A DNA stretch of 64,000 nt from Rufibacter latericius (GTDB lineage Bacteria; Bacteroidota; Bacteroidia; Cytophagales; Hymenobacteraceae). Shown in pieces: positions 389 through 62,655 of this stretch (positions are counted from its first letter, which is position 1; each line of letters starts with the position of its first letter). Position numbers and translations under genes: made by a program. The DNA is taken from NCBI RefSeq assembly GCF_003721515.1, contig NZ_RJJD01000004.1, positions 124,001 to 188,000 of the forward strand, in the 5' to 3' direction. The notes under the pieces are model-generated. The model was not told the origin of the DNA. It searched no databases and saw only the letters and a list, made by a program, of their open reading frames with translations.

Positions 389-426
389 CGGTTTGGGCCT
401 GGTTTAAAGAAAACACCGCCAAAACG
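389..426. repeat. intergenic palindrome, degenerate copy 1
   Basis: This is a 38-bp imperfect palindrome with the outline CGGTTTGGGCCTGG then TTTAAAGAAAA and CACCGCCAAAACG. It has the length and end signature (CG.TTT ... AAAACG) of the family repeated through the window. It lies 40 bp upstream of the ettA start. Confidence 0.45.
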
Positions 427-465
427 ATTCCTGCCGAGGAACGAACCTGAATCTAACTACTATTC

Positions 466-2133
466 ATGAGCAACGAAACCATCATCTTCTCCATGGCGGG
501 GGTGAATAAAATTTACCCCCCGCAGAAACAAGTTCTTAAGAACATCTATCTCTCCTTTTTCTACGGCGCCAAAATTGGCGTGTTGGGTCTCAACGGCTCT
601 GGTAAATCCTCTCTCCTGAAAGTGATTGCCGGCGTAGACAAGCAGTTCCAGGGCGAGGTGGCTTTCTCCCCGGGCTACTCTGTTGGGTACCTGGAGCAGG
701 AGCCGCAGCTGGACCCTTCCAAAACCGTAATGGAAATTGTGCAGGAAGGCGCCGCCGAGACCGTGGCCCTCTTAAAGGAATTCGAAGAAATCAACGAAGC
801 CTTCGCGGATGAAAACGCTGATTTTGACAAACTGATGGCCCGCCAAGGCGAAGTGCAGGAGAAACTGGACCACCTGGGTGCCTGGGACCTGGACAGCAAA
901 CTGGAGCGCGCCATGGATGCCCTGCGGACCCCTCCGGGAGACGCCGTAGTAGGCAACCTCTCCGGGGGTGAGAAACGCCGCGTAGCCCTGTGTCGCCTCT
1001 TATTGCAAGAGCCCGATGTGTTATTGCTGGATGAGCCTACCAACCACTTAGACGCTGAGTCTGTGCTGTGGCTGGAGCAACATTTGCAGCAATACAAAGG
1101 CACCGTGATTGCCGTAACCCACGACCGTTACTTCCTGGACAAAGTTGCCGGATGGATTCTGGAACTGGACCGTGGCGAAGGTATTCCGTGGAAAGGCAAT
1201 TACACCAGCTGGCTGGAGCAGAAAGCCGAGCGTTTAGCCAAAGAAGAGAAAACCGAAAGCAAGCGCCAGAAGACCTTACAGCGTGAATTAGAGTGGGCCC
1301 GCATGAGCCCGAAAGCGCGTCAGGCCAAGTCTAAAGCGCGTTTAGGCAACTACGAGAAAATGGCCTCCGAGGAAGCCAAAGAGAAAGAGCAGAAACTGGA
1401 GCTCTTCATTCCAGACGGCCCGCGCTTAGGTAACGTGGTAATTGAAGCCGAGGGACTGACCAAAGCCTTCGGGGACAAGCTCCTGTTTGAAGACTTGACG
1501 TTCAACTTGCCGCCTGCCGGAATCGTGGGAATTATAGGGCCGAACGGTGCGGGTAAGTCTACCTTGTTCCGCCTCATCACCGGCCGCGAAGCCGCCGATG
1601 CCGGAAACATCACCGTGGGACCAACCGTGGAAACCGCCTACGTAGACCAGCAGCACGAAAGCCTGGACCCGAACAAGTCTGTGTTCGAAACCATCTCCGG
1701 TGGTACTGAGACCATGCTGTTGGCCGGCCGCCAAGTGAACGCCCGCGCTTACGTGAGCAAGTTCAACTTCACCGGCGGTGACCAGGAGAAGAAGGTAGGC
1801 GTGCTGTCTGGGGGAGAGCGTAACCGCGTGCACCTGGCCATGACCCTGAAGCAAGGCGCCAACCTGCTGCTCTTAGATGAGCCTACCAACGACCTGGACG
1901 TAAACGCCATCCGTGCCCTGGAAGACGCCCTGGAGAACTTCGCTGGTTGCGCCGTGGTAATCAGCCACGACCGCTGGTTCCTGGACAGAATCGCCACCCA
2001 CATCCTGGCCTTCGAAGGCGACTCGCAGGTAGTTTGGTTTGAAGGAAACTTCTCAGACTACGAAGAAGCCAAAAAGAAACGCTTGGGTGACGTAGAACCG
2101 AAGCGTATCCGCTACAAAAAGCTGATGGACTAG
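466..2133 (+). CDS. ettA: energy-dependent translational throttle protein EttA (ABC-F ATPase)
   Basis: A soluble 555-residue ABC-F protein with two nucleotide-binding domains and no membrane segment. Family members bind the ribosomal E site and couple translation to the ATP/ADP ratio. Visible motifs are Walker [10 protein letters not shown] at about 41-49, signature LSGGEKRR at about 165, Walker B with [11 protein letters not shown] at about 186, second Walker A GPNGAGKS at about 358, signature LSGGERNR at about 447, and [11 protein letters not shown] at about 467. The interdomain linker at about 240-310 is rich in Lys, Arg and Glu, as expected of the P-site tRNA interaction motif. Length matches EttA (about 555) rather than the longer Uup or YheS. 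The gene is a single transcription unit followed at once by a terminator hairpin. Confidence 0.93.
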
Positions 2134-2156
2134 TCCGTTTAGCGCCTGATATTATG

Positions 2157-2192
2157 AAAAGAGCCCGGAAACGTAAGTTTCTGGGCTCTTTT
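2157..2192 (+). terminator. rho-independent terminator after ettA
   Basis: The arms AAAAGAGCCCGGAAAC (2157-2172) and GTTTCTGGGCTCTTTT (2177-2192) pair with one G-U wobble around a 4-nt loop. The hairpin ends in a T run 24 bp after the ettA stop. The left arm carries the AGCCCGGAAAC word seen in other terminators of this window. Confidence 0.85.
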
Positions 2193-2253
2193 CGTATTCA
2201 GATAAAAGGTGAATGGAGTCTTGCCTTTGGTGAGAAAACAATAGCTGAAGGGC

Positions 2254-2568
2254 TTATTCGTCGCAGTCCAGGTCTGAAGTCACGGCTACTAACGTCTCTT
2301 CTAATTCCTCCCGGGTTTCTGCATCTAGAATATCACATTCTCTGGCGGCCTCTAGGTAGTCTACCGTCGCCTTTTTGTAGGCTTGGCAATTTGCCTTGCT
2401 TTGATCTTTATAATAGGCATCTACTGCTTTTTCAAAAGCCTCAGTTTCATCTTTTAAACCACAGGGGTCCTCAGCCGGATCTTCTCCATCGTCATCGCTT
2501 GAGCAGGAGGTAAAACAAAGACTGCCAGAAGTGGCTACTAATAAGAGCAAAAGATGGATCTTCTTCAT
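2254..2568 (-). CDS. small hypothetical lipoprotein
   Basis: A 104-residue protein with a lipoprotein signal: MKKIHLLLLLVATSGSLCFTSC, with the acylated Cys at about 22, followed by an acidic SSDDDGEDPAEDP linker. The mature part is short, helical and acidic, with four further Cys (PCGLKD, ANCQAY, ARECDI, LDCDE) that could form two disulfides in the periplasm or on the cell surface. I do not recognise the family. It is convergent with ettA and has a long non-coding region behind it. Base composition is more AT-rich than in its neighbours. Confidence 0.8.
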   Translation of the reverse strand: MKKIHLLLLLVATSGSLCFTSCSSDDDGEDPAEDPCGLKDETEAFEKAVDAYYKDQSKANCQAYKKATVDYLEAARECDILDAETREELEETLVAVTSDLDCDE

Positions 2569-3297
2569 AAAACTGGGGTTAGTTTGTATATTGATTAAAT
2601 TTTATATTGACTAAAGAATTAGAAGCTAAAAGTATAGGTCTGGTTTTTTGTAATAGAATTGGTTTGGCATCATAGCTTCAGGCGTCGAACAAAGGCAAGT
2701 AACTTCTCGCTAAGTAGGAAGATCGTCAGGCGCTTTTAGGCATTTTCAGAAGTATAGACACAGAGAAATCTCTTTACCCCTAATCTGGCTGTCAGTTTTT
2801 CGCCTTCTTTTAGTTTTTAGGCCGGAAATAGGGAAGGAGGGCGGTTTTGCTTCTAAGCCACAACTTTGGCAGAATAGGTAGATTGCCAGCTTCGAAGGCG
2901 TGGTCCACTATCCAGAATGTGATTTCTTGAAAGGAGAAGGATAGAAAGTCAAGATCATCTTTGTCTTCAGTTTTATATAAAATCTTTGGTGCCCAGTACC
3001 GAGTGATCAGCAGGGCTCAGTCTAATAATAAACTTTCATCAGGCGGCAGTGTGCTACACCCGTTAATCCCTGAAGTTGTCTTAATAGGTCTGTTGAGATG
3101 ATCTCTGTTTTGTAGTTGATTTCGCAAAAACGACGCTAAAACAATAGCACAAGTAGGGGCTGGGGTAAAATCAGAATCTACCTGATCTGCCTCGTCATGT
3201 TTTTGTACTGAAAAACGTCCGTTTGTTTTTACTGTGATGCCAGAAAACAGTAGCTTTAGTTTTTATACATCCCCTAACCTTATAAGATAAACAGCAG
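2569..3297. other. 729-bp non-coding region
   Basis: I find no convincing gene in this AT-rich stretch between the divergent small lipoprotein and the first chitinase. Half-copies of the palindrome family may be present near 2731-2753 (CGCTTTTAGGCATTTTC). It should carry the promoters for both flanking genes. A weak candidate -7 box TAGCTTTA (3251-3258) precedes the chitinase by 40 bp, but its possible -33 TTTG at 3222 is 25 bp away, wider than usual. The low information content could also mean a decayed gene. Confidence 0.5.
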
Positions 3298-4530
3298 ATG
3301 GATAAGTTATTGAGAGCAGTGAAGCTGTTTTTCTTCTTCTTTTTTCTCGCTTGGCAGGCCCAGGCGCAAAACAAAGTGGTGGCGTACCTGCCCAACTGGT
3401 TAGACTACAATTCCATCGCCAGAAATATTGACTACGACAAGTTAACCCACATCAATATTGCCTTCGAGAATACAGATGCTGCCGGTAACCTGAGTTTCAC
3501 GGCCTCAAACAATACCTTGATACAGCTGGCGCACGCCAAAAAGGTGAAAGTACTGGTATCCATAGGAGGCGGGATGATTTCTTCCAACCCCAGCATGTAT
3601 GCGGTTTACTTTGATTTGATCAGTGATGCCAAACGGGCGGATTTCGTGCGCAAGATAGCGGCGTATCTAACATCACATAACCTGGACGGGATAGATGTAG
3701 ACCTGGAAGGATCTTCCATTAACAGCGATTACGGCAAGTTCATTGCTGATCTCTCTGCCGTTCTCAAGCCACAGGGCAAGTTGGTGACGGCGGCGCTGGC
3801 GCATACCAACGGCGGTGATTCCGTGACCAGCGATACCTTCCAGTATTTCGATTTCATCAATATCATGGCCTATGACGAAACTGGCCCGTGGGCTCCTAAT
3901 CGTCCGGGACAGCATTCTTCCTTTGAGTTTGCCAAAGCCTGTCTGGATAATTGGATAGGCCGCGGGCTCCCGAAAGAGAAAGCCGTGTTAGGGGTGCCTT
4001 TTTATGGCTACGGTTTCGGGGCCGATTTTAACCAGGGCATGGGTTTTGGGGAAATCATCAAACGCTATCCGGGTTCAGAAAACCAGGATCAGGTAGGAAA
4101 CACCATCTATTACAACGGCATCCCTACCATCAAGGCTAAAACCGAATATGTAGTGGAGCAGCAGTACGGCGGAATCATGATCTGGCAACTGGCCCAGGAC
4201 GCGACCGGAAACTATTCCTTGCTCAACACCATCCATCAGGTTTTAAGAAAAGTCACGGGTTCTGGCCCTCAGGATGCTGAGGCGATTAAGGTGCATATTT
4301 ACCCAAACCCTACCAAACTACCTGCCATAGGATACCTGGCTTTCCCAGCCGCCACAAACAAGATAAAAGTGGAGATCAGGGACATGAAGGGGGCGAAGGT
4401 ATTTGACAAGACCTTCAAGAATAAACAACGGCAGGATAGAATAGAACTGCCAGGCCTTTCTCAAGGCATGTATCTTATCCGGGTAAAAGCAGATGATCAG
4501 GTGTTTTCCAATAAATACCTGATAGAGTAA
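3298..4530 (+). CDS. secreted GH18 chitinase with type IX secretion sorting domain
   Basis: A 410-residue protein. An N-terminal signal peptide (LFFFFFFLAWQAQAQ) is followed by one glycoside hydrolase family 18 barrel at about 25-315. The catalytic motif DGIDVDLE is intact at residues 130-137, with E137 as the expected proton donor, and IMAYDE stands at about 190. From about 330 a small beta domain begins with YPNP and ends in SQGMYLIRVKADDQVFSNKYLIE; this is a Por-type sorting tail that directs export through the type IX system. It should cleave chitin or a related GlcNAc polymer outside the cell. It is the first gene of the chitin locus, 212 bp before susC. Endo-N-acetylglucosaminidase activity is an alternative within GH18. 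Confidence 0.88.
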   Translation: MDKLLRAVKLFFFFFFLAWQAQAQNKVVAYLPNWLDYNSIARNIDYDKLTHINIAFENTDAAGNLSFTASNNTLIQLAHAKKVKVLVSIGGGMISSNPSMYAVYFDLISDAKRADFVRKIAAYLTSHNLDGIDVDLEGSSINSDYGKFIADLSAVLKPQGKLVTAALAHTNGGDSVTSDTFQYFDFINIMAYDETGPWAPNRPGQHSSFEFAKACLDNWIGRGLPKEKAVLGVPFYGYGFGADFNQGMGFGEIIKRYPGSENQDQVGNTIYYNGIPTIKAKTEYVVEQQYGGIMIWQLAQDATGNYSLLNTIHQVLRKVTGSGPQDAEAIKVHIYPNPTKLPAIGYLAFPAATNKIKVEIRDMKGAKVFDKTFKNKQRQDRIELPGLSQGMYLIRVKADDQVFSNKYLIE

Positions 4531-4742
4531 CCATCTGATGAGATTGCCAAATTGCTACTGTTCTGGCAGGTTTGAATGAATTTATTTCAATAGTATTCTT
4601 GAATTGGTTCTATTCTTCTCTTTGGGTAGAGCCGGTAAAATGTATTCGTCCATTTCTTTCTGAATGGCTGCATTTTAAATTATATTAGAATCTTAGTAGC
4701 TCCTTTTCTCACCCCCTTCCATCTTGTAAAAACTCTCTATGT

Positions 4743-7700
4743 ATGAACAAAACTTTTACTTTTCCTAAGAAATGGATAACAGTCCTGCTAATGATGCTGA
4801 CTGTTGTCTTTTACCGGGCAGAAGCGCAAACGAACGTCATCACTGGCCAGTTGGTGTCTTCTGAAGATAATTCGCCCATTCCCGGGGCAACAGTCCTGCT
4901 CAAAGGGACTTCTACCGCCACTGCCACAGATGCCAGTGGCCGCTTCAGCATTCCGGCCCCGGTGGGTAGTGTGCTGGTGTTTTCCTTTATTGGCTATGTT
5001 CCGCAGGAAGTAACGGTGGGTACCCAGACCAACATCAACGTTACGTTAGCGCCAGACGTGACCGCCCTGTCTGAAGTAGTGGTAACGGCGCTTGGTATTA
5101 AAAGAGATGCGAAGGCGTTGGGTTACTCTATTTCACAGGTAGGAGGCAGCGAATTGGCCACCGCCAAAGAAATCAACGTGATCAACTCCCTTTCCGGCAA
5201 AGTGGCCGGGGTGGATATCTCTACCCCTACGGCAGGTCCATCCGGATCCTCAAGGGTAATCATTAGAGGGAACTCAGAGTTAAGTGGCAACAACCAGCCT
5301 CTGTATATCATTGACGGCGTGCCCATGGACAATACCACCGCTGGCGGTGCCGGACAGTGGGGCGGGTATGACCTGGGTGACGGTTTGTCAAGCCTTAATC
5401 CCGATGATATTGAATCAGTATCGGTGTTGAAGGGCGGAGCTGCGGCTGCGTTGTATGGCTCTCGGGCTTCCAACGGCGTTATCATGATTACTACTAAATC
5501 AGGGGCCAACCAAAAAGGGATTGGCGTAGAGTACACCAGCAATTATACCGCTGAAAGGGTGTTGTCTAAGTTTGATGATTACCAGAAAGTATACGGCCAA
5601 GGCCGGGACGGCTTATTGCCTATAGAGCCCAACGCCAACAATACCCAATCAGCGTGGGGGCCTCAGCTAGACCCAAACCTGAGACTGCAGATCTACAACG
5701 GGGAGACCAAACCCTATTCTTTGGTGAATGACAACATCCTGAGCTTTTTCCGAACGGGGTCAACCTTTACCAACACGTTGGCTTTTACCGGCGGAACAGA
5801 GAATGCCTCCGTTAGGGTCTCTGTTTCTGACATGCACAACAAAGACATCGTGCCCAAGACCGGTATGGCCCGCAATACCTTCCTGATCAACAGCACCATG
5901 AAGTTGGGCTCTAAAATCACCATCAACGGGAAGGTGAACTACATCACTGAAAAGGTTGATAACAGACCGGCTTTGTCAGATAACCCCAACAACGTGGGCC
6001 TGGCCATCATCGGGATTGCCCCTAACTTTGACCAGCGCTGGCTTTCTCAAGGCTATAAAGATGAGTTCGGCCGCTATCAGGACTGGAACGGGAACACCTA
6101 CCGCATCAACCCTTACTGGTCCATCAACGAGATGTCCAATACCTCCAGACGGAACCGGGTAATTGGCTATCTGCAGATGAACTATGACTTCACAAGTTGG
6201 CTAGGGCTGCAACTACGCGGCGGTACTGATTTCTATAATTTCCGCTATACCAACTTCTCGCCTAAAGGAACTCCGCTGTGGGAGACCGGTGCCCTGCAGG
6301 AGCAAAGCAATCACTTGGCGGAGAAAAACTACGAAGCCCTCCTGAAGTTTGACAAACAGTTCACCGATGACTTCTATGTTACGGCGTTTGCGGGTGGTAA
6401 CATCATGCACCGCCGAGCCGAAAACCAGATGAGCACCGGTTCTGGTATTGTACTGGAAGGCATTCAGGCCATTACCAACTTTACCACCCAGAGCAATGAT
6501 TATGGCTTGTTCCGGAAACAGATCAACTCTCTGTATGGAACCGTCCAGACCGGCTACAAAGACACTTACTTTCTAGACGTAACCGCCCGGAATGACTGGT
6601 CTTCTACCCTGAGCAAAGGCAATAACTCCTACTTCTACCCGTCCCTTTCCGGAAGTTTCGTGTTCACGAACCTATTGGATAGAAGCCCTATTCTTTCTTT
6701 CGGTAAACTGCGGGCTTCCGTAGCTGAAGTAGGTGGTGACACAGATCCTTACCAGTTAAGCTTAACGTACGGCTTGAAGAACTTTTCCCTGTTGGGCAAA
6801 CCGCTGGGCGAGATTTCCAATACCAGTGTTCCCAACCTGTCGCTTAAGCCAACCCAGACCTTCACTTATGAATTCGGGACCGATCTCCGGTTCCTGGAGA
6901 ACAGAGTGCAACTGGATTTAACCTATTACAGCAAGAAAACCACTGACCAGATTCTTCCTTTGATAATTCCGTCTAGCAGTGGCTATAATACCGCTATCAT
7001 CAATGCCGGTGAAATCACGAACAAGGGAGTGGAGCTTATGCTGAGAGGTGGTGTGGTTTCTACCCCTACTTTCTCCTGGGATGCGATCGTGAACTTTGCT
7101 CGCAATGTGAACCAGGTAGTGAGCTTGCATGAGCAGGTAAAAGAGTACACCCTTGCCAATGCCCGCTGGGCCGGAGCCGCCATCATGGCGCAGGAAGGGG
7201 AAACCTTCGGGACAATTGTAGGCAAGAAACTGATGCGCGACCCAGAAGGAAATGTGGTGCACAACGCCGCCGGTTTACCGGTGTTCGGTACGGAGCAGGA
7301 GGTATTAGGCAAAGGAACCTATGACTGGACCTCGGGTATCACCAATGTGCTGACCTTTAAAGGATTCAGATTGAGCGCCTTGGTAGATATCAAATCAGGC
7401 GCCGATGTGTACTCCATGAGCAGTGCCATTGCCCATACCAACGGTACCTCTGAAAACACCCTGGAAGGCCGTGCCGGATGGTATGCCTCAGAAGAAGCCA
7501 GATTAGCCGCTGGCGCAAGCCCAGCTGAATGGACGCCAACCGGCGGGTATGTGGGCAAAGGCGTGGTGAACGTAGGCACCACAGAAGCTCCTAACTATCA
7601 ACCCAACACCACTTATGTGAATCCGCAGAGTTATTGGGCTCAGTTCCTGTCTAATTCACCGGAGCCGTTTATCTATGACGCTACCTATGCCAAACTCAGA

Positions 7701-10943: not shown

Positions 10944-10995
10944 GTACTCCTGCTTTAAGGCTGTTTTACCCAAAACGACCTTAAAGCAGGAGTAC
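10944..10995 (+). terminator. long hairpin ending the chitin operon; palindrome family copy 2
   Basis: The arms GTACTCCTGCTTTAAGG (10944-10960) and CCTTAAAGCAGGAGTAC (10979-10995) are perfectly complementary. The inner part CTGTTTTACCCAAAACGA continues the stem with one mismatch and one wobble. A short T tract follows (TTTTG). The core CTGTTTT...AAAAC matches the dispersed palindrome family. It lies 29 bp after the pseudo-GH18 stop and probably separates the susCD unit from the next chitinase. Confidence 0.8.
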
Positions 10996-11155
10996 TTTTG
11001 AAAGCCCCAAATTACTTCCTGAAACTACGCTCTACCGGAAAATTGATTCAGGCCGGTTTTCTGAAAAGAAGGTCAGAAACAGATGTGGTATGCATTTTTG
11101 AGTTAGTTTCCGCTAAAGGAGCTTAAAACAAACCGAATTTTTCCTCCCATCCCTT

Positions 11156-13420: not shown

Positions 13421-13440
13421 CTCACTTCAAACTTGATTTC

Positions 13441-13483
13441 ATGAAAAGAGCCCGGAAACAATTTGCTTCCGGGCTCTTTTCAT
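13441..13483. terminator. bidirectional terminator between convergent genes
   Basis: A perfect 17-bp stem, ATGAAAAGAGCCCGGAA (13441-13457) with TTCCGGGCTCTTTTCAT (13467-13483), and a 9-nt loop. A-rich and T-rich flanks make it usable from both sides, for the peptidase (+) and the FabF gene (-). It shares the word AAAAGAGCCCGGAAAC with the ettA terminator. Confidence 0.85.
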
Positions 13484-13511
13484 GAAAACGCTGTAAAAAC
13501 AGAGATAATCC

Positions 13512-15865: not shown

Positions 15866-15975
15866 GAGGGCAGTAGATAGGGAATGCCGTTTCTGAGGCT
15901 GTCGCCTTACTGATTTGCAAACTTCAGGTCATGGAAGGTCCAAGTTGAAAGCTTGAACCTTCATGCATTTTTGAA

Positions 15976-16030
15976 CTTGTGAGCGAACTAGAATGGCGTT
16001 GAATCAGCGGTATTCTAGTTCGCTCACAAG
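15976..16030. repeat. 19-bp perfect inverted repeat
   Basis: CTTGTGAGCGAACTAGAAT (15976-15994) is repeated exactly in reverse complement at 16012-16030, around a 17-nt spacer. There is no T tract at either end, so it is not a classical terminator. It sits 110 bp after the hydrolase stop, in the gap between convergent genes, and is unrelated to the other palindromes here. It could be a large operator, a transcript-end stabiliser or the remnant of a small mobile element. Confidence 0.8.
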
Positions 16031-16112
16031 GTCCATTCAGGATGACAAAGGAGGATAAAAGGAGCAATCATTCTGCCTTGTGCTTACATCACTTCTGAGC
16101 CTGTTTATACCA

Positions 16113-19618: not shown

Positions 19619-19796
19619 TCTGGTTAAAATTACAATTTGTTCTCGATTTTGAGAGCCTCAGAGAAGCTTTTGTATTCTGTGGATATTCATTTATGTTCCT
19701 GTTTAATAAAAAAATACTCCAAAAAATTTATTGGCACCATTGTAGCTGTAAAATATAAGAATTTTACTTTACTTCGTACCCAAGAAAACATATCAG

Positions 19797-20369: not shown

Positions 20370-20406
20370 CGTTTTAGCCTTATTTTTCTAACTTAAGCCC
20401 CAAAGC
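20370..20406. repeat. intergenic palindrome, degenerate copy 3
   Basis: CGTTTTAGCCTTATTTTTC followed by TAACTTAAGCCCCAAAGC. The ends and spacing follow the family outline, but the arms are only partly complementary. It is located between yjjX and pxpB. Confidence 0.45.
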
Positions 20407-24163: not shown

Positions 24164-24199
24164 TGTTTTGTCCCTGTTTTGGGAAAATAGCCCTAAAGC
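24164..24199. repeat. intergenic palindrome, copy 4
   Basis: TGTTTTGTCCCTGTTTT followed by GGGAAAATAGCCCTAAAGC. This is the first of three copies packed in the 259-bp gap between the convergent transporter and M16 genes. Confidence 0.6.
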
Positions 24200-24210
24200 C
24201 AGTAGTAATC

Positions 24211-24248
24211 TGTTTTAAGTCTGTTTCCTGGAAAACACGCCGAAAACG
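24211..24248. repeat. intergenic palindrome, copy 5
   Basis: TGTTTTAAGTCTGTTTCCT followed by GGAAAACACGCCGAAAACG, exactly 38 bp. It is the second copy in the same gap, 11 bp after the first and in the same arrangement. Confidence 0.65.
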
Positions 24249-24320: not shown

Positions 24321-24357
24321 CGTTTTAAGGCTAATTTCCTCAAATTGGCTTCAAAGC
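24321..24357. repeat. intergenic palindrome, copy 6
   Basis: CGTTTTAAGGCTAATTTCC followed by TCAAATTGGCTTCAAAGC. It is the third copy in this gap, with a weaker right arm. It lies 22 bp from the M16 stop codon. Confidence 0.55.
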
Positions 24358-27603: not shown

Positions 27604-27641
27604 CGTTTTGCCCTTGATTTCCGGAAAACAGGGGCAAAACG
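27604..27641. repeat. intergenic palindrome, copy 7 (clean)
   Basis: CGTTTTGCCCTTGATTTCC followed by GGAAAACAGGGGCAAAACG, 38 bp. The outer arm reads TTTTGCCC/GGGCAAAA instead of the more common TTTTAGGC/GCCTAAAA, so both sides have changed together. It lies in a divergent promoter region, not at a gene end, which argues that the family is not only terminators. Confidence 0.8.
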
Positions 27642-30607: not shown

Positions 30608-30687
30608 GCCTCTTTTTGCCAAAATCTGCCTCTTTTGCCCGGGAGAGATGTTGCGGGCAGGCGTAACTATTTTAGCTTTGTTTCTGT

Positions 30688-30718
30688 AAAAGGAGCCTTA
30701 AAACACGGGGCTCCTTTT
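30688..30718 (+). terminator. terminator after the receptor gene
   Basis: AAAAGGAGCC (30688-30697) pairs with GGCTCCTTTT (30709-30718), with TTAAAACACGG in the loop, and further T residues follow. It is 80 bp after the stop. Confidence 0.8.
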
Positions 30719-33009: not shown

Positions 33010-33048
33010 CTGTTTTCTGCCTGTTTCCAGAAAAAAAGCCCGGAAACG
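33010..33048. repeat. intergenic palindrome, degenerate copy 8, overlapping a terminator
   Basis: CTGTTTTCTGCCTGTTTCC followed by AGAAAAAAAGCCCGGAAACG. Its right half is also the left arm of the terminator at 33037-33057, so two alternative hairpins compete for the same bases. Confidence 0.5.
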
Positions 33049-33057
33049 TTCCGGGCT
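33037..33057 (+). terminator. terminator after the histidine kinase
   Basis: AGCCCGGAA (33037-33045) pairs with TTCCGGGCT (33049-33057) over a 3-nt loop, preceded by seven A and followed by CTTATTT. It uses the AGCCCGGAAACG word shared with terminators at 2157 and 13441. Confidence 0.75.
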
Positions 33058-33423
33058 CTTATTTAGAATGCAAGGGCCGAGCAGGAATGCACGGCGTCTC
33101 ACAATGAACAAACTCTTTTGTGGCTTAAAGCCAAACTAGAAACGTTGTCTGCCACGGTTTATTGGGTATCCTTCCTCCCCAAAAATGCTTTTACGAACAA
33201 GTGCCTGATCTGCGCACAGAAAGCTTGGTTTTGCTGGTGAAATCAGGAAAATTCCTCGGAAACAAGGCTTGTTTTAGAAAATTGGCGCAGAAACGCCTCT
33301 TCGTAGCTTCTGCCAATCACGATGTCAATTCTTAGGAGAAATGGTATTGTCTCGCCTACCTTCTACGTGTTTAAAGGGCATCAACCAAGGAATTGCACCC
33401 GTGCAAGAAAGATCCGGGTAAAA

Positions 33424-35711: not shown

Positions 35712-35713
35712 TC

Positions 35714-36905: not shown

Positions 36906-36943
36906 CGTTTACAAACCGATTTTCAGGAAACAGCCTCTAAACG
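36906..36943. repeat. intergenic palindrome, copy 9
   Basis: CGTTTACAAACCGATTTTC followed by AGGAAACAGCCTCTAAACG, 38 bp, located between two minus-strand genes. Outer ends and centre fit the family; the variable arms are only partly complementary. Confidence 0.55.
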
Positions 36944-37438: not shown

Positions 37439-37585
37439 ATCGGTCAATTTAAGGGTAGTTTGATGAAAAAGCATCAGAAACACCTCCGCCGGAAGTTTTC
37501 AAAAGAAGCTTCCTGGAGGTGCTGGCTATTCAAATTTACCAGAATTTACCCGAGCGCAAAACCCGAGAGGCAGATTTAAAGGAGG

Positions 37586-37625
37586 ATTCTTTTACCCCCG
37601 TTTTCAGGAAAATGCCCCTAAAGAA
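37586..37625. repeat. intergenic palindrome, degenerate copy 10
   Basis: ATTCTTTTACCCCCGTTTTC followed by AGGAAAATGCCCCTAAAGAAT. Outer ATTCTTT/AAAGAAT pairs. The inner variable arms read CCCCC against GCCCC, so this copy has one arm of the opposite sense and would form a broken stem. Confidence 0.5.
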
Positions 37626-41963: not shown

Positions 41964-42003
41964 TTGTTTCAGGGCTGTTTTACTAAAAACAGCCCTGAAA
42001 CAA
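41964..42003. repeat. intergenic palindrome, copy 11 (perfect stem)
   Basis: TTGTTTCAGGGCTGTTTT (41964-41981) pairs perfectly over 18 bp with AAAACAGCCCTGAAACAA (41986-42003) around a 4-nt loop ACTA. It is one of the best-formed members of the dispersed family. It lies 22 bp after the stop of the small minus-strand lipoprotein and may terminate it. Confidence 0.85.
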
Positions 42004-47307: not shown

Positions 47308-47343
47308 GCTTTAAGGCTCTTTTCCGAAAAACAGCCTTAAAGC
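47308..47343. repeat. intergenic palindrome, copy 12
   Basis: GCTTTAAGGCT (47308-47318) pairs with AGCCTTAAAGC (47333-47343) perfectly. The inner CTTTTCC/GAAAAAC part continues the stem with one mismatch. It sits 26 bp after the MATE gene stop on the minus strand. Confidence 0.75.
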
Positions 47344-49547: not shown

Positions 49548-49582
49548 GTTTTAGAGGCGATTTCCTGAAAATAGGGCTAAAA
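49548..49582. repeat. intergenic palindrome, copy 13
   Basis: GTTTTAGAGGCGATTTCC followed by TGAAAATAGGGCTAAAAC, 35 bp. Outer GTTTTAG/CTAAAAC pairs perfectly. It lies 31 bp after the stop of the serine hydrolase on the minus strand. Confidence 0.65.
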
Positions 49583-49612
49583 CCTTTCCTCTTGAAAGAA
49601 TTGGGCAAAAGG

Positions 49613-51559: not shown

Positions 51560-51596
51560 CGTTTTACCCCTATTTTAGGGAAAACAGGCAAAAAAC
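51560..51596. repeat. intergenic palindrome, degenerate copy 14
   Basis: CGTTTTACCCCTATTTTAG followed by GGAAAACAGGCAAAAAAC. The CCCC/GGCA arms are no longer complementary, as at 37586. It is located between two minus-strand lipoprotein genes. Confidence 0.5.
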
Positions 51597-53504: not shown

Positions 53505-53829
53505 GGTGAACACAACCATCTCTTAGCCTTCTCAAAAGACCGCCTGAACAGAAAAAAGCAAGTGTTCTAGCACCTAGTGGATTTTAGTGCTGCCAGCGAA
53601 CCGCTACAACATCACCGCTACACTTGTATTGGCCATGAAGGGTTAGGCGCTGGTTTCAGCAGGAAAGGGTTTTGGTTTTAGGGCTCTTTTGGGGAAATCA
53701 GGGCCAGAACAGAACTTCTGGTTTGGGCAGAAATCAACCCGATAACCGAACACTTACAAGGCATTGGCAGTATTTACACTGCTGGCCTTTCAATTTTCTT
53801 TAGGCAGCGTGTCTTCTATCCTTGCCTGA
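53505..53829. other. 325-bp non-coding region
   Basis: No gene is present between the antiporter and the GH15 gene. It includes one dispersed palindrome (53675-53710), and the GH15 promoter should lie in its last 100 bp. I find no clear -33/-7 pair. Confidence 0.5.
53675..53710. repeat. intergenic palindrome, copy 15
   Basis: GGTTTTAGGGCTCTTTTGG followed by GGAAATCAGGGCCAGAAC, 36 bp. The left half is close to consensus, the right half is weaker. Confidence 0.55.
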
Positions 53830-56475: not shown

Positions 56476-56511
56476 GTTTTCAAGCCGATTTCTCAAAAGA
56501 AAGCCCAAAGC
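56476..56511. repeat. intergenic palindrome, degenerate copy 16, merging into a terminator
   Basis: GTTTTCAAGCCGATTTCTC followed by AAAAGAAAGCCCAAAGC. As at 33010, its right half is also the left arm of a terminator (56501-56517). Confidence 0.45.
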
Positions 56512-56547: not shown

Positions 56548-56668
56548 AAAGCAGGAGATAAGGGTTTCCCGCTTTCTTTTAGGAAACTAACCTAAAAACA
56601 ACAGGTGGCGGCAAATAGATTTAAAATGGAAATGTACAGCTATGGTTTTCAACAACATTGTATAGCCG

Positions 56669-56717
56669 CAGGCCTCTATTTTCAGCCTTTTTCAAAAAAG
56701 CTGAAAATAGAGGCCTG
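56669..56717. terminator. 49-bp near-perfect palindrome between convergent genes
   Basis: CAGGCCTCTATTTTCAGC (56669-56686) is the exact reverse complement of GCTGAAAATAGAGGCCTG (56700-56717). The 13-nt middle CTTTTTCAAAAAA folds too, so nearly the whole 49 bp is one stem. It contains the family core (AAAGCTGAAAA) in altered order. It lies between the GH15-SDR operon and the minus-strand lipoprotein, 76 bp after the latter's stop, and may stop transcripts from both sides. Confidence 0.75.
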
Positions 56718-56793
56718 ATAAATTGGTCTACTTGCCAGTTTCTAGTGCAGATTTAGTACACCCATTCCTTCCCTTTCCAAGGAAAGGAATTTT

Positions 56794-57606: not shown

Positions 57607-57814
57607 TTAAGGATATTGAATTAATAGCTTTTGTGCACCTGAAGATATTCATTGGTTTTTTGTTAGCAAGAAAACCGTAAAAAGAAACTAATAATGATAA
57701 GAAAATATATTTCATGATAGTGCACCTAAGGTCTGGCACAAACAAAGGCTGGCGTGAGATGAGGCAAGTTGCCCGATTATGAACTATAAGGGCGTTCTCC
57801 TTAGGAAAAGAATT

Positions 57815-58531
57815 CTATTGATTTACACGTAACTGCATACGAAGATACCCGTTCTCCACTCTTCTCTGAGATGCTATGGCATTCCAGTCATATCTGGTAG
57901 GGACGTTGCTTAATAAATTGGCGGAAAAACGTGCCTCTAATAGATAGTTGCCATTGCGTAACTTTGAAAACCGGGTGATTTCAAATTTGGAATTATTCTG
58001 ATAGTCAAGTCCCAGAGTGGTGGGGTAGCGTCTGTTTCCGGGAAGATAGGATTGTAAGAAACCGTCTGTGCTGTTTTGGATGTCTATAGCTATTCCGTTT
58101 TGTGTGTTGAATCTGTTGTAATCCACCGCGTACCTGTGTTCGCCGACGGCATACAACTCCTTTTCATTTTCAGGTGCATTAAACCACGCTACTTTGGTCA
58201 ATTCTTTTTTGGGGTATTTTTTTGAAAACCTGATAGTGATAAGAGAATTGTCACTGCTTCTGAATTCAAAAGAATTGGAATAAAAAATAGAGTCAGGATG
58301 TCCCTTGTCTGTGACGCTGTCTAAATTAACCTGAGCAAATCTTCTTTCTGGCCCTAAGACCCTTACATGGGTATGTAATTTGTCATACAAGGTGTAAGAG
58401 CAAGAGTCTGAAAGCTTCTCCAAGGAAACTCTGGAGCCTTGTACGGGCGGTTCAGTCTCCGTCATTGGGTCTTCACAGGAACTAAGGGTTAGAAAACAAG
58501 AGGCAAGAAAAAGAATGGGAAAATACTTCAT
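57815..58531 (-). CDS. hypothetical lipoprotein, orphan
   Basis: A 238-residue protein with lipobox LASCFLTLSSC. The mature part is beta-rich with many Asn, Ser and Phe: VSLEKLSDSCSYTLYDKLHTHVRVLG, YSNSFEFRSSDNSLITIRFSKKYPKKELTK, HRYAVDYNRFNTQNGIAIDI, SKFEITRFSKLRNGNYLLEARFSANL. I recognise no family. AT-rich codon use, like the YD-repeat lipoprotein next to it, marks both as a possibly transferred pair. Its stop faces a 208-bp gap with no clear terminator. Confidence 0.75.
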   Translation of the reverse strand: MKYFPILFLASCFLTLSSCEDPMTETEPPVQGSRVSLEKLSDSCSYTLYDKLHTHVRVLGPERRFAQVNLDSVTDKGHPDSIFYSNSFEFRSSDNSLITIRFSKKYPKKELTKVAWFNAPENEKELYAVGEHRYAVDYNRFNTQNGIAIDIQNSTDGFLQSYLPGNRRYPTTLGLDYQNNSKFEITRFSKLRNGNYLLEARFSANLLSNVPTRYDWNAIASQRRVENGYLRMQLRVNQ

Positions 58532-58730
58532 ACGGGGATTAAATTTTGAATAACTATTGGAATAGGAAGTACCTTAGATGATAGGCATCTAAGGTACCTA
58601 TAGATAGGTGAGTTTGTCTTTTATTTTTTTGAATTTTATCCTCCTCTTTCCTCCAACCAAAACTGGTATCTGAAAACGAAGTGCTCCTAGAGTCTCGTTT
58701 TTTCGAAAGGATGGAGCCCGGAAGTAGAGA

Positions 58731-61610
58731 CTACTCTACCGATGGCCGGGAAGTGGTGGACGTGGTCTTTACTTTCAATACGGCTGGTTTTACGCCGCTG
58801 CCAGAGGCTTTCAGGGTGATCTCCCCGGCTTCCTTGGTGGTTTGGATGATGATCTGGGCCAGGCCGTTGAACAGCTTCCGTTTCCAGGGAGCCGCCGGCG
58901 TGAACACCTGGATGGTGCCCGGATTGGTGTTCACGTTATCCCAATCGTTCTTCTTAGGGATGGGTGTGGCCACGATATCTACCGTGTTAGCACCCGCTTT
59001 GAGTAAGGATGGATGTAACTTGAAGACATTCCCCTCGGGGCTTTCTTTCAGGTCTTTTGCCAGTTCTTTGCCGTTCACATAAATGGTTTGCTCCCTACCG
59101 ATGCTCTTGTAAAAGAAGGTGACCTCTGAGCCCGCAAAATCAGCGGGAAGTTCGAAGGTGCCTCGGTGCAGATAGGCCGGGCTTAGGTTTTTGTAGTCCC
59201 TGGAAGCGAAAGCGTCTTTCCAGGTGGCATCTGCAGGACCAGAAACAGCTTGCTTCCCATTCTCTAGGTTAGCCACTGGCATTTCTTTCAGGTTGGTGAT
59301 GCTGATAGCCTGTATCTCTTCTATGAACTTGTCTTTCTCCAGCGAGGTAGGGTCTCCGTTGCCCACACCTATGATCTTGCCGGGGCCAGTGAGCGTAAAG
59401 GTAATCTCGTTTCCGGCGGTAGGTACGGCTAATCGGTTTTTGTCTTCTACTGAGACGGTAATCACGGCCAGGTCTTCACCGTTGGCGAAAAGGGAGGTTT
59501 TGTGCGGAGTGAGTTTCACCGAGGCCGGTGCCCCCGTGGTTTTTACATTTTCGGTGAGTACTTTTTTGCCGTTCTTGTAGCCAATGGCTTCTAGGGTACC
59601 GGGAGCGTACGGTACTTTCCACTCCAGGTGCGAGTTGACCTTCATTTGTTTGCGACCCAGGCTTTTTTTGTTTAGGAACAGCTCCACCTCCTCACAGTTG
59701 CTGTACGCCCACACGTCCATCTCTTTGCCTTCCTGACCCTGCCAGTTCCAGTGGGGCAGCAGGTGTAAGGTGGGTTGGTCTGACCACCACGACCGGAGGT
59801 AATACACGTTGTCCTTCGGGAAACCACAGTTGTCCATCATCCCAAAATAGGAAGTCACCGACGGCCAGCCGTGCGGCGTGGGTTCACCACGGTAGTCGAA
59901 ACCCGTCCAGATGAACATGCCGGCGAGCCACGGGCGGTTGGCGTAAAAGGTCCAGCCTTCTTCTATAGAGTAAAAGCTGGGGCGAGGTTTCCGGTCATAG
60001 GCGGCCTGGTAATGCTTCTCCTGATCGGTGACGTACACGCCCCGGGTAGCGAAGGTGGAGCCCTCCTCGGTGCCCATGCCGGGCTGGTTCGGGAAGCGTT
60101 GGTAGTGCGCCTCAATGTTGCCGTTGCCCAGGTAATTGTAGCCCATTACCTCCAGCACATCAGAGATGCCGCTGCCAAAGCCCCCGCTGATGCCCGCCGA
60201 GACAGCCCGGGTAGAATCGAGGCTCTTCACATACTGTTGCATGGTGGTGGCAATGCGCGCGCCAATGATGCTGTTTTCAATGGCCCATTCCTCGTTCCCG
60301 ATGGACCAACTGATGATGCTGGGGTGGTTGCGATCCCGCAGGATCAGGTTCTTAAGGTCATACTGCATCTGGAAGTTGGTACCCATCAGGCGGTTCTCGT
60401 CTATTACCAACATGCCCAGGCGGTCGCAGGCTTCCAGCAATTCTGGGGTAGGAGGGTGGTGCGAGCAGCGGTAGGCATTAGAGCCCATGGCTTTCAGTTG
60501 TTTGATGCGCCAGTATTGCAGTTCATCGGGGAGGGCGGTGCCCACGCCGGCGTGGTCCTGGTGGTTGTTGGTGCCTTTCAGTTTCACGTGTTTGCCGTTC
60601 AGGAAGAAGCCTTCCTTGGCATCGAACCGGATAGTCCTGATCCCGAAGTTGGTTTCGTAGCGATCTACTTCCTGGTTTCCTTCTACCACGGTGGTCACCA
60701 GTTTATACAGGTACGGGTTCTCCAAATTCCAAAGCTTAGCGTTGGTCACCGGCAGTTCTATCGGAATCTCCTGGGTTTGGGAAGGGGCCAGTTTTAGGTT
60801 CTCCTGCCGTTTGGTAGTAATGGTTTTGCCCCCCGCGTCTACAATGGTCTGCACCAGCGCGAAAGATTTGGCCGCCTTGCCTTCGTTTATGATAGAGGTC
60901 TTTGTGGTCACATTGGCATTGGCGTTGTTTACCTGGCTCGTCACGAAAGTACCGTTGGGGGCTACGTGCAAGGGCTCTGTTTTGGAAAGCCACACGTGCC
61001 GGTAAATACCGGCTCCCTCGTAGTACCAACCTTCTTCCATGGTGGCGTCTACCCGAACGGCCACTACGTTGTTGCCGCCATAGTTGAGGATATCAGAGAG
61101 GTCGTAGCGGATGCCGTTGTACCCGCTGGGCTCCTGACCCAGGTAATGGCCGTTTACCCAAACCTGCGCGTTCCGGAAAACGCCGTCAAATTCTATGGCG
61201 ATTCTGCGGCCCAAATCGGTGGCAGGAACGGTGAAGGATTTCCGGTACCAGCCCACGCTTTTATCTGGGAAGTTGCGCCCAATGGCCTTGAACCCGTGGC
61301 TGAAGCTGGCCTGCGGACTGAAATCCTGTTCCACAGCCCAGTCATGCGGCAGGTCTAGTTTCCGCCAGGCACGGTCATCGAATTTGGCATCAGCGGGGCC
61401 GTCTCCGTAGCCCGCTTTGGCCAGGTAAGAAAAGTAGCTGGTGCCGTGGTTGAAGTCTTTTTTGGCGTCAGAAGGATGCCCAAACGAGAAGCGCCAGTTG
61501 AAGTCCATCAGCAGCCGTTCCCGCTTTCCCGGGGTGCGGTCCTGGGCTTGCGCCACTAGTTGCAGAAGGCATAAGATACTTACCAGAAGATGTCTCTTGA
61601 AGAAATGCAT
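58731..61610 (-). CDS. GH2 beta-galactosidase-like hydrolase, exported
   Basis: A 959-residue protein begun at the ATG at 61610 for the signal HLLVSILCLLQLVAQAQ. Domain order: jelly-roll sugar-binding domain at about 45-200 (DFNWRFSFGHPSDAKKDF, DLPHDWAVEQDF), immunoglobulin-like domain, TIM-barrel at about 305-580 with acid/base Glu in ISWSIGNEEWAIE and nucleophile Glu in FDYRGEPTPHGW, then DUF4982-type and further beta domains. It cleaves beta-galactosides or related plant or algal glycans in the periplasm. No PUL partners lie next to it, so the substrate is open. Confidence 0.9.
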   Translation of the reverse strand: MHFFKRHLLVSILCLLQLVAQAQDRTPGKRERLLMDFNWRFSFGHPSDAKKDFNHGTSYFSYLAKAGYGDGPADAKFDDRAWRKLDLPHDWAVEQDFSPQASFSHGFKAIGRNFPDKSVGWYRKSFTVPATDLGRRIAIEFDGVFRNAQVWVNGHYLGQEPSGYNGIRYDLSDILNYGGNNVVAVRVDATMEEGWYYEGAGIYRHVWLSKTEPLHVAPNGTFVTSQVNNANANVTTKTSIINEGKAAKSFALVQTIVDAGGKTITTKRQENLKLAPSQTQEIPIELPVTNAKLWNLENPYLYKLVTTVVEGNQEVDRYETNFGIRTIRFDAKEGFFLNGKHVKLKGTNNHQDHAGVGTALPDELQYWRIKQLKAMGSNAYRCSHHPPTPELLEACDRLGMLVIDENRLMGTNFQMQYDLKNLILRDRNHPSIISWSIGNEEWAIENSIIGARIATTMQQYVKSLDSTRAVSAGISGGFGSGISDVLEVMGYNYLGNGNIEAHYQRFPNQPGMGTEEGSTFATRGVYVTDQEKHYQAAYDRKPRPSFYSIEEGWTFYANRPWLAGMFIWTGFDYRGEPTPHGWPSVTSYFGMMDNCGFPKDNVYYLRSWWSDQPTLHLLPHWNWQGQEGKEMDVWAYSNCEEVELFLNKKSLGRKQMKVNSHLEWKVPYAPGTLEAIGYKNGKKVLTENVKTTGAPASVKLTPHKTSLFANGEDLAVITVSVEDKNRLAVPTAGNEITFTLTGPGKIIGVGNGDPTSLEKDKFIEEIQAISITNLKEMPVANLENGKQAVSGPADATWKDAFASRDYKNLSPAYLHRGTFELPADFAGSEVTFFYKSIGREQTIYVNGKELAKDLKESPEGNVFKLHPSLLKAGANTVDIVATPIPKKNDWDNVNTNPGTIQVFTPAAPWKRKLFNGLAQIIIQTTKEAGEITLKASGSGVKPAVLKVKTTSTTSRPSVE

Positions 61611-61973
61611 ACCGTGATTCAATTCTGTTTCGGGTAGAGGAATGAAGTAAAAAGGAACAGGTGAAGGTATGCAGTTCCACCCACTTCTTTTCCGCTTATT
61701 TTAACAGACTTTAGTCGATTCTTAACAGACTTCCAGAAAGCAGGCCTAAAACGGATGTTCGAAACTCTTGCCTAAAACTTAAAATTCCCTTCTCTATGAT
61801 TTGCCCAATCGATGGTTTGAAGGGATGAGCAAAGCTTCTAAAGGTTAAAAAGCCTCCATCCGCTTTCGGCCTGGTTTGGGAAAAACAGGCCGAAAGCGGA
61901 TGGAGGCTTGAATTGGTAAAACTGTAAACTTGGGGACCAGTCTTAATTCTTCTAATCTAAAGGCTGTTTGTTA
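61611..61973. other. 363-bp non-coding region with a very long hairpin
   Basis: There is no gene here. It contains the GH2 promoter side (minus strand), a degenerate half-copy of the dispersed palindrome at about 61720-61753 (ACAGACTTCC then AGAAAGCAGGCCTAAAACGG) and the 24-bp perfect hairpin at 61850-61909. Confidence 0.55.
61850..61909 (-). terminator. 24-bp perfect hairpin, terminator of the NADP oxidoreductase gene; palindrome family copy 17
   Basis: The 24-base arms at 61850-61873 and 61886-61909 are exact reverse complements with a 12-nt loop GTTTGGGAAAAA. The inner part (TTCGGCCTGGTTT...AAACAGGCCGAA) matches the dispersed palindrome family, while the outer 10 bp (AGCCTCCATC) extend it. 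On the minus strand it is followed by TTTTTAACC, a proper T tract, 65 bp after the oxidoreductase stop. Confidence 0.85.
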
Positions 61974-62573
61974 TTACTTTAACTGAATCAGGTTTAGCCC
62001 AGGTAACGAACCGCCAGGAAACTGCTGCAGTTTGGCAGCTTCAGCAAGAGTACCCAAGTCAACCCCGGCAAAACCAAGCCGGGTAATGAGCTCCAGCACA
62101 GTTCCCTTAGCGCCTTGATCATCTCCGGAATAGAAAACCACCCGGTTCCCGTCTGCTTCCTGGGGGCTAGCGGCAAGTAAAGAATGCAGAATGGTATTGA
62201 AGGCTTTCACCACCCTGGCCCCGGGTACTAAATTGGCTACCACCTGGCTGGAGGGCTGTCCGTTTAAAGGAGCGGGAACAAAGCCCGGCAATACCGGATT
62301 GGTAGCGTCTATCACCAGTTTGCCCTCCCAGGTAGGAACTGTTGAAACGGCTTTTTCTATCTGCGGCCAGGTCACTGATAAAAACACGATGTCAGCCGCA
62401 GCAGCTTCTTGGACTGTGCCGGCTTTGATGCCGTGGCCAATCTCCTCCACCGCTGCCTGTAAGGTCTCTGGCCCGCGACTGTTGCTGATGATTGTGTCAT
62501 ACCCGGCTCTGGCAGCGTGCTGCGCGAAGGCTAACCCTATTTTACCTGCTCCTATAATTCCTATGCTTGCCAT
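61974..62573 (-). CDS. NADPH-dependent F420-reductase-like oxidoreductase
   Basis: A 199-residue Rossmann-fold protein: SIGIIGAGKIGLAFAQHAARAGYDTIISNSRGPETL gives the dinucleotide-binding start, followed by ADIVFLSVTWPQIEKAV, GKLVIDATNPVLPGF and GARVVKAFNTILHSLLAAS. The family is related to F420-dependent NADP reductases, but most non-archaeal members do not use F420. It should bind NADPH; the substrate is unknown. It is a single gene with a strong hairpin after it. Upstream 239 bp hold palindrome copy 18 and the promoter. Confidence 0.88.
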   Translation of the reverse strand: MASIGIIGAGKIGLAFAQHAARAGYDTIISNSRGPETLQAAVEEIGHGIKAGTVQEAAAADIVFLSVTWPQIEKAVSTVPTWEGKLVIDATNPVLPGFVPAPLNGQPSSQVVANLVPGARVVKAFNTILHSLLAASPQEADGNRVVFYSGDDQGAKGTVLELITRLGFAGVDLGTLAEAAKLQQFPGGSLPGLNLIQLK

Positions 62574-62618
62574 GGTTTCTGGTTTTATTGGTTGACGGTT
62601 TTAATAGTTGAATGAAGG

Positions 62619-62655
62619 GTTTTTGAAGCTGTTTTCCTGAAAATGGTTAAAAAGC
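62619..62655. repeat. intergenic palindrome, degenerate copy 18
   Basis: GTTTTTGAAGCTGTTTTCC followed by TGAAAATGGTTAAAAAGC. The core CTGTTTTCCTGAAAA is close to consensus. It is located between two minus-strand genes, upstream of the oxidoreductase. Confidence 0.5.

What the first reader, a model, noticed from the sequence alone, without database searches (positions are those of the whole stretch)
389..62655. A dispersed family of about 18-19 intergenic palindromes, perhaps undescribed
Almost every larger gap contains a 36-40 bp imperfect palindrome with outline CGTTTT-variable-CTGTTTT-centre(CCGG/CCTG)-AAAACAG-variable-AAAACG. Copies: 389-426, 10944-10995, 20370-20406, 24164-24199, 24211-24248, 24321-24357, 27604-27641, 33010-33048, 36906-36943, 37586-37625, 41964-42003, 47308-47343, 49548-49582, 51560-51596, 53675-53710, 56476-56511, 61850-61909 core, 62619-62655, with a rearranged relative at 56669-56717. 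All are outside genes. The variable arm differs between copies (AGGGC, AAGGC, GCCCT, CGGCC), but in the better copies both sides change together, which suggests selection on the folded form. One clean copy (27604) is in a divergent promoter region, so the family is not simply transcription terminators. It could be a REP-type mobile palindrome, a RNA processing site or a nucleoid-protein site.
Basis: partly seen in the sequence, partly recalled or inferred. Interest (0 to 1): 0.75.

Follow-up and report, generated by a model that had tools for sequence, protein, structure and literature searches.

The report
Genus-wide DNA-bending sites after genes
About half of the gene ends examined in Rufibacter bacteria carry a 36-letter mirror-symmetric DNA site that is missing from the sampled relatives; it looks like the docking site of an unknown protein that bends and wraps DNA.

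Summary
The palindromes are real, far above chance and mostly between genes, but the folded-RNA/mobile-REP reading fits only a minority. Their skeleton is GTTT-N9-TTT-N4-AAA-N9-AAAC. Exact copies: 573 in this genome, 186-1,561 in each of 16 Rufibacter genomes, 0-3 in every other genome sampled from its family and class; backwards control 0-2 in Rufibacter. TT/AA positions are 95-98% identical between two species, intergenic DNA outside elements 62%. Arms pair on average as column composition predicts, G-T and A-C mismatches are equal, and double changes show no excess compensation; yet a near-perfect-hairpin subset exceeds chance (8% of 524 copies, 27-28% in G004 and G005). Copies stay in place between species (35 of 38 gaps), lack target duplications and do not depend on RAYTs; one genome, G004, shows a possibly copied subfamily. 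They cluster 0-100 bp after stop codons. The T/A tracts are helically phased (predicted bend 65 degrees, shuffled 21), and flank A+T oscillates with a ~10 bp period to about 45 bp. Best reading: site of a DNA-bending/wrapping protein at transcription-unit ends; gyrase is one candidate. The protein is not identified.

The parts
390..425 (.). element, 1 mismatch, divergent gap
   Evidence: a copy (score >=21) in the orthologous gap of 6 of 6 relatives available
2137..2172 (.). element, 1 mismatch, not listed by reader; its right arm is the 5' half of the terminator-like hairpin 2153-2196
3107..3142 (.). element, exact skeleton, not listed by reader
10952..10987 (.). element core inside a longer palindrome 10944-10995, 2 mismatches
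11045..11080 (.). element, 1 mismatch, not listed by reader
   Evidence: ortholog in G003
11094..11129 (.). element, 2 mismatches, not listed by reader
13424..13459 (.). element, 2 mismatches, not listed by reader; right arm pairs with the left arm of the next element to form the terminator-like hairpin 13437-13487
13465..13500 (.). element, 1 mismatch, not listed by reader
19689..19724 (.). element, 2 mismatches, not listed by reader, divergent gap
20371..20406 (.). element, 3 mismatches
24165..24200 (.). element, 2 mismatches, convergent gap
24212..24247 (.). element, 1 mismatch, convergent gap
24322..24357 (.). element, 1 mismatch, convergent gap
27605..27640 (.). element, exact skeleton, divergent gap
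   Evidence: a copy (score >=21) in the orthologous gap of 4 of 6 relatives available
30669..30704 (.). element, 2 mismatches, not listed by reader
33012..33047 (.). element, 1 mismatch; right arm is the 5' half of the terminator-like hairpin 33031-33063
33228..33263 (.). element, 2 mismatches, not listed by reader
36907..36942 (.). element, 1 mismatch
37446..37481 (.). element-like, 2 mismatches, not listed by reader (gene start here is uncertain)
37589..37624 (.). element, 3 mismatches
41966..42001 (.). element, exact skeleton, perfect palindrome; orthologs in G014 and G003 with paired arm changes
47308..47343 (.). element, 2 mismatches
49548..49583 (.). element, exact skeleton
51561..51596 (.). 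element, exact skeleton
53675..53710 (.). element, 1 mismatch
56476..56511 (.). element, 1 mismatch
56564..56599 (.). element, exact skeleton, not listed by reader
56669..56717 (.). long palindrome, 4 mismatches to the skeleton; membership doubtful
61717..61752 (.). element, 2 mismatches, not listed by reader
61862..61897 (.). element core inside a 28-bp-arm palindrome 61850-61909, 2 mismatches
62619..62654 (.). element, 2 mismatches

Best explanation
Each palindrome is a double-stranded DNA site with two-fold symmetry: four T/A tracts, placed about one helical turn apart on one face, around a 4-bp centre. A protein (unidentified) binds it and bends or wraps roughly 90-100 bp, including flanks whose A+T content follows the helix. 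The sites spread through Rufibacter after it separated from its sister genera and are kept by purifying selection, mostly within 100 bp after a stop codon and most densely between convergent genes. There the complex probably acts on DNA topology or as a boundary between transcription units. DNA gyrase is one candidate binder, because the E. coli gyrase motif has the same plan; a nucleoid protein of unknown family is the other. Shown: presence, geometry, conservation, position, genus restriction in the sample, flank periodicity. Inferred: protein binding, wrapping, function and the identity of the protein.
For: In 524 copies selected by skeleton alone, arm pairing equals column expectation at most positions and oriented G-T versus A-C mismatches in the arms are 300 versus 312; 42/48, 81/76 and 22/16 in G004, G005, G001. 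Column identity G014/G003 0.95-0.98 at j=3,4,14,15, 0.80-0.86 at j=2,16,17, intergenic background 0.62. Of 54 arm pairs with both sides changed 29 stayed paired, 26.2 expected. 16 of 16 Rufibacter genomes; 0-3 exact copies in 188 other genomes of the family and in 394 non-Rufibacter genomes of a class sample that overlaps the family. Predicted bend 64.7 degrees versus 21.0 shuffled and 21.6 with inner tracts moved half a turn. Flank A+T periodicity in 965 copies, peaks near 21, 30 and 41 bp; power at 10.5 bp 0.0101, null maximum 0.0009; similar phase (44-64 degrees) in four sets; kept in 711 copies with little flank pairing. Position: 217 of 308 tandem copies 0-100 bp after the stop, 72 of 103 in G004 and 62 of 98 in G005; density 2.65/kb convergent, 2.04 tandem, 1.30 divergent. 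Retention: 83 of 98 ortholog comparisons, 35 of 38 gaps. Gyrase motif plan (36-bp centre, 4-bp stagger, 10.75-bp periodic flanks): PMC6379681, passages and section 23 read.
Against: No binding data and no candidate protein: numbers of type II topoisomerase A, HU and Lrp/AsnC matches are alike in Rufibacter and sister genera, so an ordinary gyrase would need a changed preference in one genus. PMC6379681 says gyrase attraction downstream of genes in E. coli does not seem hard-wired. A near-perfect-hairpin subset exceeds chance everywhere tested (42 of 524, 3.7 expected; 48 of 179 versus 19.6, 44 of 158 versus 11.6, 13 of 43 versus 5.5), G005 has 5.86 arm pairs per copy against 5.34 expected, and 46 of 524 copies sit in longer stems, so folding matters for some. 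Excess pairing at j=11-12 and 18-22; near stops the flanks show G-T 244 versus A-C 207, though G004 and G005 flanks do not (48/55, 51/70). G004 has a subfamily with coupled arms and centre. The terminator association may mean a role in termination. The bend model uses wedge parameters recalled from memory.
Confidence: 0.58

Rival explanations
1. REP/BIME-like mobile palindrome spread by a RAYT or other transposase, later retained.
For: Short, dispersed, intergenic, high copy, 3'-end preference like REPs in PMC3733652 (passages); RAYT genes in 15 of 16 Rufibacter genomes; G004 subfamily with TCCA centre in 64 of 191 copies and arm-centre coupling.
Against: No GTAG, GTGG or CGTC excess at the ends and no target duplication of 4 bp or more; arm-identical copies in G005 share neither centre nor far flanks beyond background; RAYT absent in G006 (607 copies), RAYT 79-83% identical in G021/G022 with 0 exact copies; 35 of 38 gaps shared between two species at 85% identity; conservation lies in the TT/AA skeleton, not the hairpin.
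Confidence: 0.12
2. Transcription terminators or 3'-end RNA hairpins specific to this genus.
For: Clustered just after stop codons; terminator-like signals enriched at element-bearing ends, 72 of 110 versus 280 of 595, odds ratio 2.1; hairpin-perfect subset above chance; 46 of 524 copies in long stems, several with a T-run after the stem; three terminator-like hairpins in the window use an element arm.
Against: On average arms not kept complementary, no wobble excess in the arms, no excess compensation; only a weak T rise (0.33) 10-20 nt downstream; also present between divergent genes at about half the density; terminator stability does not explain invariant TT/AA positions or phased flanks.
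Confidence: 0.2
3. DNA uptake or sorting signal read by a competence-type receptor, kept as inverted pairs.
For: Genus-restricted, ~10^3 copies; inverted pairs at gene ends are known for uptake sequences (recalled; PMC1852404 seen only as listing and abstract start).
Against: Single half-sites show little excess inside genes (GTTTN9TTT 58 genic, other spacings 36-50); phased bend and flank periodicity have no role in that model.
Confidence: 0.04
4. Sites that matter only as intrinsically curved DNA, without a dedicated protein.
For: Phased tracts and flanks.
Against: Conserved G at the outer end, fixed 4-bp centre and base preferences in the arms go beyond curvature; strict genus restriction in the sample.
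Confidence: 0.06

Closest known systems
E. coli DNA gyrase binding motif (Topo-Seq, PMC6379681; passages and section 23 read)
   Same: Symmetric about a 4-bp centre; central part of about 36 bp; flanks with ~10-11 bp periodic G+C/A+T; gyrase enriched downstream of transcribed units.
   Different: The E. coli motif is degenerate and, by that paper, does not seem hard-wired downstream of genes; here there is a fixed T/A skeleton, flank periodicity fades after about 45 bp, and cleavage is unknown.
REP / BIME palindromes (PMC3733652, passages; PMC2817692 listing and abstract start only)
   Same: 20-40 bp, up to thousands of copies, intergenic, near 3' ends, more between convergent and tandem genes.
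   Different: No GTAG/CGTC tag, no stem conservation in most copies, no RAYT dependence, positions largely conserved between species.
DNA uptake sequences arranged as inverted pairs (recalled)
   Same: Genus-restricted, high copy, inverted pairs near gene ends, sometimes inside terminators.
   Different: Half-sites are not clearly enriched inside genes; 36-bp fixed geometry with helical phasing.
Nucleoid proteins that bind or wrap phased A-tract DNA, such as Lrp-type octamers (recalled)
   Same: Phased A/T tracts and flank periodicity fit wrapping.
   Different: No genus-specific increase of Lrp/AsnC or HU (PF00216) matches found; I know of no member with this site.

Membership tests
REP (GTAG/CGTC-tagged palindrome) | GTAG or CGTC tag at one end | tested here: not met
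   GTAG 66 (other orientation 50), CGTC 18 (27) of 965, at or below nearby control windows (80-102 and 28-42)
REP (GTAG/CGTC-tagged palindrome) | conserved complementary stem | tested here: not met
   met in a subset of 8% (524-copy set) to 27-30% (G004, G005, G001), above expectation
REP (GTAG/CGTC-tagged palindrome) | association with a RAYT transposase | tested here: not met
   absent in G006, present in element-free sister genera, no consistent flanking position
REP (GTAG/CGTC-tagged palindrome) | dispersed, mostly intergenic, high copy | tested here: met
MITE / insertion element | target-site duplication | tested here: not met
   no direct repeat of 4 bp or more clearly above shuffled flanks; a 2-bp excess (105 versus 66.5) is 84 times GC, that is flank pairing; non-self-complementary 2-bp matches 20 versus 19.1
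MITE / insertion element | copies identical as whole units | tested here: inconclusive
   not in G005 or G000; G001 too few arm-identical pairs; partly in G004
Intrinsic terminator | G+C-rich stem followed by a T-run | tested here: not met
   met for a minority nested in or abutting terminator-like hairpins
DNA gyrase site | two-fold symmetry around a 4-bp centre | tested here: met
   of 128 copies 111 have a 4-base centre, 14 have 3, 3 have 5
DNA gyrase site | periodic A+T/G+C flanks outside a ~36-bp centre | tested here: met
   period near 10 bp, to about +/-45 bp
DNA gyrase site | gyrase binding and cleavage in vivo | not testable with these tools
   needs Topo-Seq
Uptake signal sequence | single motif enriched inside genes as well | tested here: not met
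   genic half-sites 58 at the preferred spacing, 36-50 at others

The most novel reading that the evidence does not exclude
Rufibacter has a hard-wired, sequence-encoded topology system: some 2,000-3,000 DNA-wrapping sites per genome (extrapolated from samples), bound by gyrase or by an unknown genus-specific architectural protein, placed after about half of the genes with room for one, where positive supercoils gather or transcription units must be separated.
Probability: 0.35. Interest if true: 0.88.

Novelty: new variant of a known kind. Interest (0 to 1): 0.75.

Why it matters
If the site is occupied by a wrapping protein, Rufibacter offers a natural genome in which DNA wrapping at gene ends is written in sequence. 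One could then ask directly what such sites do to supercoiling, termination and gene insulation, a question long argued for REP/BIME elements. It also shows how thousands of sites can arise and be kept in one genus while its sampled relatives have none.

Tried and rejected
RNA-fold selection: mean pairing, arm wobble and compensation tests negative; a hairpin-perfect subset remains. Rfam: no credible match in the window (8 weak matches, all below gathering scores). RAYT-driven REP: rejected as the main account; the RAYT locus of this genome (L022) carries another repeat (CAAGTTTGAGCG type). In one search the open frame around the RAYT match was read only in the forward orientation, so frames for loci where the gene is not forward are meaningless and were not used. 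Gyrase, HU and Lrp match counts as a clue to the binder: no difference between genera; other DNA-binding families were not searched. Literature: searches listed nothing on this family; several listings were partial (for example 20 of 51, 8 of 47).

Limits: my gene caller is simple; ortholog alignments dropped gapped copies (12 of 45 in G014/G003); ortholog rows take the closest matching copy; cross-species comparisons share genomes and are not independent; the terminator detector is strict (110 of 705 ends); the class densities use hits before overlaps were removed; the 965 copies and the 217 include copies in genes; the bend test used the copies with <=1 mismatch. Samples only: 448 kb of this 5.67 Mb genome, 58-160 kb of eight relatives, 400 kb each of G004 and G005.
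Full report
WHAT IS THERE. The window lies in a 5.67 Mb genome whose closest named relatives are Rufibacter (Hymenobacter and Pontibacter follow further down the list). All 18 are real; 12 unlisted intergenic copies also occur in the window. A template scan of 448 kb gave 119 hits at score >=22 versus none in one Markov-1 shuffle. Counting TTT-Nx-TTT-Ny-AAA-Nx-AAA over all spacings shows a sharp peak near x=8-9, y=4-5 in intergenic DNA, which fixes the geometry. The skeleton is GTTT-N9-TTT-N4-AAA-N9-AAAC.

TAXONOMIC RANGE. Exact skeleton counts are 573 here and 186-1,561 in the 15 other Rufibacter genomes; the backwards control is 0-2. 188 other genomes of the same family have 0-3, and 394 non-Rufibacter genomes in a sample of the class (a few from the same family) have 0-3. 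In the sample the family belongs to one genus. Extrapolating 217 copies (<=2 mismatches, genic ones included) in 448 kb gives about 2,700 in this genome, of which roughly 120 would be chance at the control rate; G004 and G005 give about 2,300 and 2,000 in the same way.

DNA SITE MORE THAN RNA FOLD. I selected copies by skeleton alone, so arms and flanks were free. In 524 intergenic copies (of 554 with <=2 mismatches, overlapping ones removed) arm pairing matches column expectation at most positions (j=5 0.45 versus 0.46, j=9 0.40 versus 0.40), with excess at j=11-12 and at flank positions 18-22. On the transcribed strand G-T and A-C mismatches in the arms are equal (300 and 312 in 308 tandem copies; 422 and 414 in 411 copies near stops; 42/48, 81/76, 22/16 in G004, G005, G001); selection for an RNA stem should favour G-T. 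In the flanks near stops G-T is somewhat commoner (244 versus 207), not so in G004 and G005 (48/55, 51/70). In orthologs, 29 of 54 arm pairs with both sides changed stayed paired, 26.2 expected. A minority is truly palindromic: 42 of 524 have 8-9 of 9 arm pairs (3.7 expected) and 46 have 5-6 of 6 flank pairs (5.1 expected). That minority is larger where the consensus is stronger: 48 of 179 in G004 (19.6 expected), 44 of 158 in G005 (11.6), 13 of 43 in G001 (5.5), while mean pairing stays near expectation (5.36/5.38, 5.86/5.34, 6.05/5.99). So folding may matter for a subset.

SELECTION AND STABILITY. Between G014 and G003 (85% nucleotide identity in aligned DNA) the TT/AA positions are 95-98% identical, j=2, 16 and 17 80-86%, the arms 59-85%, the near flanks 61-77%, and intergenic DNA outside elements 62% (33 of 45 copies with gapless alignment, 12 dropped). 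35 of 38 element-bearing gaps carry one in both species; of the three exceptions two are threshold effects (3 mismatches) and one a clear gain or loss. From this genome to eight relatives, 83 of 98 comparisons keep a copy with <=2 mismatches and 96 with <=4 (the closest copy in the gap was taken, which favours retention). With the stricter template scan, 53 of 62 gap comparisons with a copy here have one in the relative, and 27 of 108 without a copy here do.

POSITION. Density is 2.65/kb between convergent, 2.04 between tandem and 1.30 between divergent genes (before removing overlaps). In tandem gaps 217 of 308 centres lie 0-100 bp after the stop codon, and only 7 in the next 25 bp; G004 72 of 103 and G005 62 of 98 within 100 bp. 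342 of 705 gene ends with at least 60 bp of space have an element within 110 bp. Sampling a single-contig genome every 240 kb gave 5-12 copies per 20 kb, without an obvious gap. Terminator-like hairpins are commoner at element-bearing ends (72 of 110 versus 280 of 595), and many of these elements either abut the hairpin or form its loop.

SHAPE. The four tracts are spaced 11, 8 and 11 bp, so they face nearly the same side of the helix. A wedge model (parameters recalled) predicts a bend of 64.7 degrees for copies with <=1 mismatch, against 21.0 for shuffled elements and 21.6 if the inner tracts move by half a turn. Outside the element, A+T content oscillates with peaks near 21, 30 and 41 bp from the centre and troughs near 25, 34 and 45. 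The power at 10.5 bp is 0.0101 in 965 copies, against a maximum of 0.0009 in 200 flank shuffles; beyond 60 bp it is 0.0003. All four sets exceed the largest of their shuffles, three by a factor of 2.4 or more and the own set narrowly (0.0055 versus 0.0041), with similar phase (44-64 degrees). 711 copies with at most 3 of 8 flank pairs show the same. At the 30-bp peak A and T are both raised, which points to bendability rather than letters. This is what DNA wrapped on a protein shows, and it resembles the E. coli gyrase motif in plan.

NOT A STANDARD REP. There is no tag excess at the ends and no target duplication of 4 bp or more; a 2-bp excess is nearly all GC and reflects flank pairing. In G005, copies with identical arms share the centre and far flanks hardly more than others do, and the same holds for the few similar pairs in this genome. 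RAYT genes exist in 15 of 16 Rufibacter genomes, but G006 has none by either search and 607 elements, and two sister-genus genomes without exact copies carry RAYTs 79-83% identical to one of them. The exception that speaks for copying is G004, where 64 of 191 copies share the centre TCCA and centre identity rises with arm identity.

THE BINDER IS UNKNOWN. Two type II topoisomerase A matches, one or two HU (PF00216) matches and one or two Lrp/AsnC matches occur in every Rufibacter genome, much as in sister genera. So the binder is either one of these with a changed preference or a protein I did not look for.

LITERATURE. Eight searches of the held library listed no report of this family. I read passages of PMC3733652, PMC12306157 and PMC6379681 and section 23 of the last; other papers were seen as listings with the start of the abstract. 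Most subscription papers are not in that library.

Noticed in passing
window 13424-13500, 2137-2196, 33012-33063: Terminator-like hairpins are built from the right arm of one element and a following T-rich arm, in one case the left arm of the next element; the same arm could pair either way.
   Followed up: partly
L022 about 1316-2470 and window 15973-16033: A different inverted-repeat family (CAAGTTTGAGCG type) flanks the RAYT gene of this genome, and a similar palindrome lies in the window; only 4 pattern hits in 448 kb.
   Followed up: partly
G000:C17:380770-381309: The only RAYT gene found in this genome has an internal stop.
   Followed up: no
G004 (L161-L180): A homogeneous element subfamily with centre TCCA suggests recent local amplification.
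   Followed up: partly
G001 and G004 element centres: The two central bases avoid being self-complementary (7% and 6% against 27% and 32% expected).
   Followed up: partly
G008, G015: Copy number of the exact skeleton varies eightfold between species (186 in G008, 269 in G015, 1,561 in G001) without an explanation.
   Followed up: no
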